DNA of 64,000 bases, from positions 9,171,461 to 9,235,460 of the forward strand of contig OY848919.1 of assembly GCA_963693285.1 (NCBI GenBank). Direction: 5' to 3'. The translations under genes and the position numbers were made by a program. The DNA is from Xestospongia muta. Taxonomy: Eukaryota > Porifera > Demospongiae > Haplosclerida > Petrosiidae. Under the pieces are notes generated by a model, which saw only the letters and a list, made by a program, of their open reading frames with translations, did not search any database and was not told where the DNA came from. Each line of letters begins with the position of its first letter. Within the stretch, counting starts at the first letter, position 1. This document shows, one piece after another, positions 19,639 through 32,441 of this stretch.

Positions 19639-22600
19639 ATGGAATCACGTAAGTGGTTACTGAATGATTAATCTGTATGTCAGAATATGTCAGTTACCTT
19701 GTATTAATGATATGGGAGGGGCCTGGTATTTTTTACATCACTAACCAATTAATTTTTTATAATATCGTAGCTGCTATATATATATATTATTCATATTTTG
19801 TGTCTTCATTCTAGATGGTATTATGAATTCTGCTATACAAGCTTTAGTTCAATGTACTGATGTTATTATTGATTCAAGTGTTAATGCCTTTGTTCTGGCA
19901 AGAAAACTTTATGCTAAGGAGATCATCTCTGAGAATGTTTACAAGAGAGTAAGAGACAAGGCTAGTAGAGATACAAATGAAGAGCGTCTTGATTTTATAC
20001 TTGATGAAATAAAGGATCGTGTCAGGCATGATGCTAGTATTTTTACTAAATTTGTGGATATTTTAAGAGATTTAAATCGAAAAGACTTAGCTGATAAAAT
20101 TTTGTCAAAATATGAAGGTATTATACATTATGAATACATGTAATGCTAGGTATGTAATTTAATTATGTGTACAAAATAATAACAGTTGCGAAATTAAGGT
20201 TTAAGTATTTAATTCTATTGATCTATTTTTATTAGCTCTTGTAATCTCATTTGTTAGTATTCGTCAGTATGTTTTTAATAGCTATAAGAATATTTTAAGC
20301 CAGCCTGTCATTTTATATATTAGGCAGACTGTAATATTGTGTATATAGGAATGACCCACATTGTTCAATGATACAGTTGTCCAAAATGAAATTTCTGTTA
20401 CATGAAATACTTGCAGATTCGCTGAAATACAAAAATCTTATTTTATTAGCAAATGTTTTAACATATTTAGGATAATTGCCTTTCATAGCATAAAGTACGT
20501 GTGGCCAATGATAAAATGACATTGCCTCTGTTGAAAAATCTCTAGCTAATTCCCTATACTTATATCCTGAACTTATAGATCAATAAATTTATGGCATACT
20601 GCTGGCTTCAATATTATCTATATTATTAAGGTTTACTTATTATTGATGTGGTCACAATAACATCCTTTAAGTAATTGGATATCAAATTATAAGAAATTTT
20701 AAAATTTCTTACTATAAGAATGTTAATAGTGTATAAACATAGACTGTTCTTTAATAAGATTCATAAGCTGTCAAAGTTCAAGAGAATCTATTGTTGTATG
20801 AGATTCATAGCCATACATTTTGATTAGTAGCTGTTTCCATATAACACATATAAAGCTTTTCTTTTTCTGCCTGGCAACTGCTTGTGCCAAGAAGTTCTAT
20901 AATCATCTTAGACAATGTGTTGACTATATAAATGTGTGTGTTTATTTGCTATGTTGCATTCTTTTGTTGTATGTGACGGTTGAAAGCAACAAATGAAATT
21001 AAACTGCATCCTTTAACCACCAATGCATACATCAACCAATGAATTTTATTAACACTAACTGTGAGTGTAACATGATAGGTATGTCTGATTGTGCTGGAAA
21101 CGTCTTTTCTTTTCTACCTATATTTCTAGCATTGTATAGCTATAAGTCTTCAAGTGATGCTACTGCTAATTATCTGATCTTGTAGCTCTGTTTAGTGTTT
21201 CATTGTAAAGTCAGTATCTTCCAAACAATTATAGGATGATTTTTACAATTATATTTTTATTTATAAGCAGGTTTATACAGATATAATGACAAGTTTGTTA
21301 TTATTGATTGGCATATACAAACTGCCAACATAACATTTTTAAGAAATAATTTTTACTAAGCATATGTTATTTTATTGAGAGGATAGTGATAAATTAGTAT
21401 GAATCACGTGATAGGTTAATGCACAAGATGCATAGATGAGTAGGTGGAACACCTAACCCCCAGCTAACAAGGAGCTAAGCTTCCATTTTTTGTCTATTAG
21501 TATAGACACAATAATCTTAATTAAGTGCCGATCTGTACTTCTTGTAATTATTGTGATGATCATTAAGTTACAATATATTATCAGACATATTGACTAATGT
21601 CAGTAATGTGCTTCACATTGACCAAAAAAACCTTTACATAATAATTTAAACAACAAGACATGGTTTTAGTTATTTTTGAGTCTTTGATGATTTTAGTGTA
21701 TTTTCAAACAGTGTGATAAAATTTTAGAGAAAATATATAATATTACATTTTAAGTACACACTGAAGTTGTGTCATTTACATAATAGCTTACTATTATGAT
21801 GTTATATTATAGGAGATTATGACAACGTTCTACTTAATGCAGGTATTCGTACGCGTAATGATGATCGTGTCAAACATTATTCTGGTGTGCTTAAAAGAGC
21901 TCTTAAAGAGGGACATGTCAAAGTTAAATGGACCAAACAGTCTGTCTCTGGTCCTCCAGGAAGTGGAAAATCATCTTTTATGAAACTATTACTTAATAAA
22001 GATCCACCAAAATATCATCATAGCACTCCAGCAGTGAAAGTACCTAAAGTAAGAATGGTAACAACTACACCTCTTGTAGTTGGTGAAGCTGCCTCACCTT
22101 TGATTAAGGTAGATGTTAACTTACTGAAGGAGATACTTGCTGAAGCTATCAAGAAAGGAGTCAAACCACACTCATCACTAACAGTAGAAAGTGATAAAGA
22201 TGATGATACTGATAGTGATAATTCTTCTGTTGAAGCACAAGATGTTGAACAACAAAAGAATGAAGCATCTGTGGAAACTATCTTTCAACCTCAAGAGTTG
22301 TTACCATCTCCTGTTTCTAATGCTACCAAAGAAATCCTAGAGAGATTACCTTATGTGAAAACATCAACTCCTCTCTTGGAGTCACACTGGATATATGCAG
22401 TAGACTCTGGAGGTCAAGCTGCTTTTTTAGACATTGCTCCTATTTTATTACGTTATAATTCAGTGAATATTATCACTCACAGATTAAACGAAAAACTTGA
22501 TGACTTATCAAAATTTTATTATAGTGTTCAAGGAGAAGTGATCGGTAATCCAGTGGAACGACAAATCACTAATCTACAACTTATTGAAGCATCATTTCGT

Positions 22601-32441: not shown

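What the first reader, a model, noticed from the sequence alone, without database searches (positions are those of the whole stretch)
19639..32441. A CARD-ROCO GTPase-Ig-paracaspase fusion: an all-in-one CBM/inflammasome-like protease
Seen: 18 exons with consistent GT-AG sites and phases give one 1539-residue frame containing a CARD-like domain, an intact P-loop ROCO-type GTPase, three Ig domains, a paracaspase with its His-Cys pair and a final Ig-like domain. Known: in vertebrates CARD9/11, BCL10 and MALT1 are separate proteins; MALT1 has a death domain, Ig domains and paracaspase but no CARD and no GTPase. Inference: the fusion would couple CARD assembly and a nucleotide switch directly to Arg-specific proteolysis in one chain, functionally like an NLR/inflammasome with its own protease. 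I know of no described protein with this order.
Basis: partly seen in the sequence, partly recalled or inferred. Interest (0 to 1): 0.95.

Follow-up and report, generated by a model that had tools for sequence, protein, structure and literature searches.

The report
Sponge-like CARD-ROCO-paracaspase chimeric gene
In an animal genome, probably a sponge's, one gene seems to join a CARD docking domain, a ROCO GTPase-type switch and a MALT1-type immune protease in a single protein, apparently by swapping the tails of two immune genes; no RNA has yet shown that the whole protein is made.

Summary
The N-terminal exon is predicted to fold as a CARD. The long exon carries a P-loop, Roc-like motifs and a COR-like domain. 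The C-terminal half is MALT1-like: Ig domains and a paracaspase with its His-Cys pair.

The new evidence is the origin. A paralogue 0.78 Mb away has a death-domain-like-Ig-paracaspase layout and matches exon for exon from exon 6 on (582 of 683 residues identical). ROCO relatives end in a death domain or a CARD, and a decayed death-domain exon lies downstream of the focal gene. The simplest reading is a tail swap in a phase-1 intron. Both halves stayed open, which favours one transcript. But an in-frame ATG just before the first Ig exon (24520) would let the paracaspase be a separate gene, and no RNA was available.

ROCO-caspase fusions are described in bacteria (PMC8195603), and 28 loci here have the reverse order, so this is a new variant of a known kind. 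Type-1-like paracaspases are notable if the species is a sponge, which is unproven.

The parts
19639..19648 (+). Exon 1: ATG, 10 nt in all; alternative start is the in-frame ATG near the beginning of exon 2
   Evidence: GT donor and phase; a TATAAAA lies about 50 nt upstream; region 69% identical to 37727-37970, upstream of the neighbouring ROCO gene
19815..20117 (+). Exon 2: CARD domain
   Evidence: AlphaFold2 pLDDT 92, six helices; Foldseek best match Apaf-1 CARD, TM 0.80, probability 1.00, E 0.026; donor context conserved in L024
21813..23924 (+). Exon 3: ROCO-type module (P-loop GPPGSGKSS, DSGGQ, GTFYD, then COR)
24238..24369 (+). Exon 4: linker; its donor is homologous to the donor that leads into the death-domain exon of the neighbouring ROCO gene
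   Evidence: 64% identical over 33 residues to the linker at 42247-42345; donor alignment (panel C)
24527..24892 (+). Exons 5-6 (24527-24676, 24734-24892): first Ig domain; exon 5 is the fusion junction
   Evidence: Homology to the paralogous paracaspase gene begins around 24510-24535 (panel A); exon 6 matches exon for exon; an in-frame ATG at 24520 lies just outside exon 5
25594..25878 (+). Exon 7: second Ig domain
   Evidence: Pfam Ig_3 960-1029; MALT1 Ig match 2.2e-11
25963..26397 (+). Exons 8-9 (25963-26089, 26261-26397): third Ig domain
   Evidence: Pfam Ig_2 1058-1131; MALT1 Ig 3bfo match, 4.4e-5
26451..26665 (+). Exons 10-11 (26451-26492, 26627-26665): short linker exons
   Evidence: Same lengths and splice sites in the paralogue
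26958..27479 (+). Exons 12-13 (26958-27342, 27396-27479): paracaspase core with His (SGHG) and Cys (DCCR)
   Evidence: Pfam C14 2.8e-21; human MALT1 9.7e-19; dN/dS 0.36 against the paralogue
28756..29130 (+). Exons 14-15 (28756-28877, 28966-29130): end of the caspase-fold domain (AYE aligned with MALT1 AFE) and following stretch
   Evidence: Alignment to MALT1 through the paralogue; conserved exons
29571..32441 (+). Exons 16-18 (29571-29728, 29964-30059, 32328-32441): C-terminal Ig-like region and stop
   Evidence: Conserved exons in the paralogue; dN/dS 1.22 here, so weakly constrained
34954..35169 (+). Relic of a ROCO-gene death-domain exon (from about 35081) and the intron before it, broken by stops
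   Evidence: 75.5% identical to 42640-42865, which holds the start of the intact death-domain exon; alignment (panel D); stops when read in the ancestral phase

Best explanation
The locus is one gene made by intron-mediated exon shuffling. The 3' part of a MALT1-type (type 1) paracaspase gene, from Ig1 to the stop, was copied into the last, phase-1 intron of a CARD-ROCO-linker-death-domain gene. The old death-domain exon was stranded downstream and decayed, and the ROCO gene's linker donor now splices to the first Ig exon (shown: sequence homology, phases, relic; inferred: the direction of copying and the transcript). The product would be CARD - ROCO - Ig - Ig - Ig - paracaspase - Ig-like. Proposed mechanism (inferred): homotypic CARD assembly, gated by the nucleotide state or dimerisation of the ROCO module, brings paracaspase domains together. 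They dimerise as MALT1 does and cut substrates after arginine. This would do in one chain what CARD adaptor, BCL10 and MALT1 do as separate proteins.
For: Gene model and phases. Paralogue with DD-like domain-Ig-linker-Ig1-3-paracaspase-Ig on the same contig, 582 of 683 residues identical, exon for exon. CARD upstream of ROCO in paralogues L024 and L026, splice verified in L024; ROCO followed by a death domain or a CARD in relatives. Linker donor homologous to one leading into a death-domain exon, and a decayed copy of that exon downstream. No stop and almost no indel in the paracaspase part, although one neutral lineage would be expected to gain about 6 stops (P(none) 0.002, or 0.008 at a lower rate) and about 19 indels; ROCO P 0.0005. 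dN/dS 0.36 for the protease core, 0.42-0.46 for ROCO. The paralogue's promoter region and first three exons are not found at the locus. CARD fold. His-Cys and arginine-pocket acids aligned with MALT1. 150 matches to this CARD subtype in the genome offer docking partners.
Against: No RNA or protein evidence and no second species tested. An in-frame ATG at 24520, 7 nt before exon 5, would give an intact Ig1 if transcription began in intron 4 (its context, TTTATGT, looks weak). Paracaspase-half dN/dS is 0.52 and the last domain 1.22; coding DNA differs from the paralogue by about 8% and introns by about 10%, so constraint is modest. An AATAAA in intron 3 (24109) could end a CARD-ROCO-only transcript. 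The Roc G-domain has no confident model and no Pfam Roc match. None of the other 29 ROCO loci examined, with 1.5-kb flanks, carries this module, so it is a single case.
Confidence: 0.65

Rival explanations
1. Two neighbouring genes: a truncated CARD-ROCO-linker gene, and a headless paracaspase gene with its own promoter in intron 4, started at the ATG at 24520 or in a new first exon.
For: In-frame ATG at 24520, continuous with exon 5, gives MLDYLCEANK and a whole Ig1. Exon 4 can be read through to a stop at 24419 and exon 3 to a stop at 23992; AATAAA at 24109.
Against: No AATAAA or ATTAAA in intron 4. The paralogue's promoter region, start and first three exons are missing, so a new promoter is needed. 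The linker donor and the Ig1 acceptor are both phase 1. The old downstream exon has decayed.
Confidence: 0.2
2. The fusion is transcribed but is a decaying or regulatory copy: the paracaspase part acts as a scaffold or decoy, not as a protease.
For: Last domain dN/dS 1.22; overall 0.52. The same genome has a C14-ROCO family on contig C6 whose C14 fold appears to have lost the catalytic residues in 3 of 3 copies read (by eye against recalled motifs).
Against: His, Cys and the pocket residues are intact, and the protease core has the lowest dN and dN/dS of the segments (0.028; 0.36, on 7 synonymous and 10 other changes). Reading frame kept over 683 aligned residues.
Confidence: 0.12
3. Assembly error joined two unrelated genes.
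For: A TC microsatellite of over 300 bp lies in intron 6.
Against: The microsatellite lies inside the paracaspase part and has a shorter counterpart at the same place in the paralogue. The junction itself, in intron 4, has no long simple repeat, and host-type sequence resumes downstream as the death-domain relic. The contig is 13.6 Mb.
Confidence: 0.03

Closest known systems
MALT1 / type 1 paracaspases (DD-Ig-paracaspase)
   Same: Ig domains before a MALT1-like caspase fold with His-Cys and the same acidic arginine pocket; C-terminal region conserved with a type-1-like paralogue in the same genome
   Different: The N-terminal death domain and first Ig are replaced by CARD-ROCO-linker
CARD-CC / BCL10 / MALT1 (CBM) signalosome
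   Same: CARD, assembly and paracaspase in one pathway
   Different: Three separate proteins there, one chain here; no coiled-coil CARD-CC part was recognised, and a ROCO switch is added
Bacterial AP-GTPase (ROCO) conflict proteins with C-terminal effectors, including caspase (PMC8195603, passages)
   Same: ROCO switch followed by a caspase-fold effector in one chain
   Different: Bacterial ones have N-terminal LRRs; here a CARD, and the effector is a MALT1-type Ig-paracaspase module
C14-ROCO loci of this genome (contigs C6 and C10, 28 pairs)
   Same: Caspase fold and ROCO in neighbouring exons, in one pair in one open frame
   Different: C14 comes first; in the three C6 copies read the catalytic residues look lost; the C10 copies were not read
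ROCO-death-domain and ROCO-CARD genes of this genome
   Same: Same ROCO exon family, 85% identical to the closest copies; the linker is shared with the neighbouring ROCO-death-domain gene
   Different: They end in a death domain or a CARD, not in a protease
NLR inflammasomes
   Same: CARD plus nucleotide switch controlling a caspase-fold protease (analogy only)
   Different: No NACHT, no LRR; protease in cis

Membership tests
Type 1 paracaspase (MALT1 family) | N-terminal death domain | tested here: not met
   CARD-ROCO in its place; the paralogue on C3:8.41 Mb has a DD-like N-terminus that aligns with the C12 gene's death domain; no Death match in the focal protein
Type 1 paracaspase (MALT1 family) | Ig domains directly before the protease | tested here: met
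   Three Ig stretches; MALT1 Ig matches among other Ig proteins
Type 1 paracaspase (MALT1 family) | Caspase fold with His-Cys and acidic arginine pocket | tested here: met
   MALT1 9.7e-19; aligned HG, LDCCR, D in HSDV and AYE via the paralogue; residue roles recalled
Type 1 paracaspase (MALT1 family) | C-terminal Ig domain | tested here: inconclusive
   Region conserved with the paralogue but not matched to MALT1 Ig3 by sequence
Type 1 paracaspase (MALT1 family) | Arg-specific protease activity | not testable with these tools
   Needs expression and assay
ROCO proteins | COR domain after the GTPase | tested here: met
ROCO proteins | Roc GTPase domain | tested here: inconclusive
   P-loop, DSGGQ and GTFYD motifs conserved among paralogues that cover them, but no Pfam Roc match and a low-confidence model
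CARD domains | Six-helix CARD fold | tested here: met
   pLDDT 92; nearly all of the 50 Foldseek rows shown (of 132) are CARDs, best Apaf-1 TM 0.80, probability 1.00; best E 0.026, none below 0.001
NLR | NACHT and LRR domains | tested here: not met
   No such family at E<=1 in the 1539-aa protein
Bacterial AP-GTPase effector proteins | LRR-ROCO-effector order | tested here: not met
   ROCO-effector order present, LRR absent; family definition from PMC8195603 passages

The most novel reading that the evidence does not exclude
A self-contained GTP-switched, CARD-nucleated MALT1-type protease: a whole CBM-like pathway compressed into one chain in a sponge, created by exon shuffling inside a large, recombining CARD/ROCO/death-domain gene system in which the tail of the ROCO protein is exchangeable. 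It would imply that type 1 paracaspases, reported in 2018 as not found outside cnidarians and bilaterians, existed before the split of sponges from other animals.
Probability: 0.37. Interest if true: 0.85.

Novelty: new variant of a known kind. Interest (0 to 1): 0.7.

Why it matters
If the single transcript exists, a natural fusion shows which parts of the CBM pathway can be placed in one chain, and predicts that CARD assembly alone, or gated by a ROCO switch, can activate a MALT1-type protease. It is also a well-preserved example of how innate immune genes may gain new effectors: donor, acceptor and stranded relic exon are still visible. The other type-1-like paracaspase genes in the same genome bear on when the MALT1 lineage began: a 2018 paper reported that type 1 paracaspases could not be found outside cnidarians and bilaterians (PMC5978004, passages read).

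Tried and rejected
Simple chance ORF: rejected. Independent paracaspase gene: not excluded (see rivals). CARD by sequence: Pfam and a profile search of PDB gave no CARD; only the predicted fold supports it. Roc domain by structure: the model was too poor; in the VIA-align list essentially only the COR stretch was covered, so nothing is concluded about the G-domain.

Relatives in other species: the search for homologous proteins with the full model gave 1 weak Ig-type hit among 7991 candidates scored; a second query with the ROCO exon was not accepted, so no cross-species test could be made. Taxonomy: no direct identification. A silicatein-like active-site pattern gave one hit, which reads as a cysteine-type protease. 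Ionotropic glutamate receptor and innexin families gave 0 matches, but the tool warns that this does not show absence. Class C GPCRs gave 152 matches (150 of 322 candidates scored), against 33 reported for the sponge Amphimedon (abstract passage) and 25 for Dysidea (table passage), so this hint is weak. I read the whole as sponge-like, not as proof.

Literature: answered searches were made; none of the titles or abstract openings listed describes a CARD-ROCO-paracaspase fusion. Searches timed out, so the claim that it is undescribed rests on five searches of an open-access library and on recall. Read only as found passages: PMC8195603, PMC5978004, PMC4302439, PMC12909245. Two further look-ups by DOI or PubMed id timed out (96, 97).

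Full report
What is there. The window lies at 9.17-9.24 Mb of contig C3 (13.6 Mb) of a 158-Mb animal genome in 28 contigs. A stop-free run of 704 codons is not a chance event (P about 6e-23).

Where it came from. A gene at C3:8.41 Mb, 0.78 Mb away, encodes 911 residues: a death-domain-like exon, an Ig, a linker, then Ig1-Ig2-Ig3-paracaspase-Ig. From Ig1 on it is the focal gene's twin: 13 of 13 exons (6-18) correspond, and 582 of 683 aligned residues are identical. I take it as the parent-type gene; which copy is older was not tested. Its N-terminal domain is not recognised as Death by Pfam, and its PDB matches are weak and not MALT1, but it aligns with the death domain of a third gene on C12 (24% over 90 residues, including a shared GSP motif). 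That C12 gene, read as separate exons and not fully modelled, has a Pfam Death domain (1.8e-5) whose PDB matches, 4 of 4, are MALT1 (E 0.04-0.1), two Ig domains and a paracaspase with MALT1-like DMCR (4e-28). The genome therefore holds one clear type-1 paracaspase gene (C12) and one probable one (C3:8.41 Mb). Only these showed the Ig-paracaspase combination among the 22 loci searched; most of the 106 C14 matches were not examined for Ig.

The host side. The ROCO exon has a large family: 63 of 947 first-look candidates were scored, giving 70 match rows. Of the 30 loci cut out (L023-L052, 1.5-kb flanks), 2 have a CARD before the ROCO exon (L024, L026), 6 a CARD after it (L024, L025, L030, L034, L036, L038) and 14 a death domain of varying similarity after it; in 10, the focal one included, neither was found in the flanks. 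None besides the focal locus has Ig1 or this paracaspase there. The CARD-to-ROCO splice in L024 uses the same donor and acceptor context; for L026 no clear equivalent was found. The neighbouring gene at 39.6-43.0 kb has the same linker, then a death-domain exon (Pfam Death 0.0034, below cut-off). Downstream of the focal gene, at 34954-35169, lies a copy of that death-domain exon's start and its upstream intron, 75.5% identical, with stops when read in the ancestral phase. The linker donor of the focal gene is homologous to the donor that leads into the death-domain exon. The focal gene therefore looks like a CARD-ROCO-DD gene whose last intron received the 3' part of a paracaspase gene.

Is it one gene? 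Both halves are kept open. Against the paralogue, dN/dS is 0.52 overall and 0.36 in the protease; against the two nearest ROCO copies it is 0.42-0.46. A neutral focal lineage would be expected to gain about 6 stops in the paracaspase part (P(none) 0.002; 0.008 at a lower assumed rate), about 7 in the ROCO part (0.0005), and, at the indel rate of the 10 of 13 introns compared, about 19 indels in 2049 coding bases; only the 3-nt change in exon 13 and the altered tail are seen. The paralogue's promoter region and first three exons are not found at the locus. Against one gene: an in-frame ATG at 24520, 7 nt before exon 5, could start a separate paracaspase with a whole Ig1; the last domain has dN/dS 1.22; coding DNA is only slightly more conserved (about 92%) than introns (89.6%); an AATAAA lies in intron 3; and there is no RNA. 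The dS varies along the gene (0.08-0.24), so gene conversion between copies is possible.

How it may work. CARD assembly is the likely trigger. The genome has 150 matches to this CARD subtype, a few with stops (150 of 264 candidates scored), including CARDs on ROCO relatives, so homotypic partners abound. The ROCO module would gate assembly by nucleotide state or dimerisation, in line with the switch role given to AP-GTPases (PMC8195603, passages). Clustering would dimerise the paracaspase, as for MALT1 (recalled). All of this is inference.

How new. Bacterial ROCO proteins with caspase among their effectors are described (PMC8195603). In this genome 28 of 28 ROCO matches on contigs C6 and C10 have a C14 match within 300 bp upstream, and in one pair both matches report the same 987-aa open frame. 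Of these, three C6 copies were read and look catalytically dead (by eye against recalled caspase motifs); no C10 copy was read. On C3 no listed C14 match other than the focal one lies near a listed ROCO match. The focal order, and the use of an Ig-paracaspase module, is new to me and absent from the titles and abstract openings of the five searches that answered. Type 1 paracaspases were reported in 2018 as not found outside cnidarians and bilaterians (PMC5978004); whether later work changed this could not be checked.

Noticed in passing
L011/L012 (C12:1.107-1.112 Mb) and L009/L010 (C3:8.41 Mb): One clear and one probable type-1 paracaspase gene (DD-Ig-paracaspase), the first with a MALT1-like DMCR active site; type 1 was reported in 2018 as not found outside cnidarians and bilaterians.
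   Followed up: partly
C6:0.81-0.95 Mb and C10:1.72-1.89 Mb (e.g. L040, L048, L050): 28 C14-then-ROCO pairs. In L050 a CAP-Gly fragment (0.00017, below cut-off; CYLD-like by eye) precedes the C14 fold, several C6 copies have a death domain after ROCO, and the C14 of the three copies read seems to have lost the catalytic His and Cys. CYLD is a MALT1 substrate in vertebrates (recalled).
   Followed up: partly
window 39678-41795 and 42247-43049 (+): Neighbouring ROCO-linker-death-domain gene whose P-loop reads GPPGSEKS (altered glycine), so it may not bind nucleotide.
   Followed up: no
window 54371-57139 (-): ROCO gene 85% identical to the focal ROCO exon, followed by a CARD exon.
   Followed up: partly
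window 33438-34412 (+): Debris downstream of the focal gene: fragments of ROCO (84% to 56823-56550), of the paracaspase exon 15 region and of DNA shared with 51366-51798.
   Followed up: partly
window 24437-24475: Intron 4 holds a second, degenerate copy of the end of the linker exon, a sign of local rearrangement near the junction.
   Followed up: no
window 7147-7401 and 17391-17471: Further death-domain exon copies of the ROCO-DD type, the second very short.
   Followed up: no
window 5228-5758, 11650-12270, 13393-15484 (-), 49051-49629: Transposon pieces: hAT dimerisation region, DUF5641, copia-type gag and integrase parts, MULE transposase domain.
   Followed up: partly
window about 25235-25575: More than 300 bp of TC repeat in intron 6, with a shorter TC repeat at the same place in the paralogous paracaspase gene.
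   Followed up: no
genome-wide: 150 matches to one CARD subtype over many contigs, and 152 class C GPCR matches, far above the 33 reported for Amphimedon.
   Followed up: no
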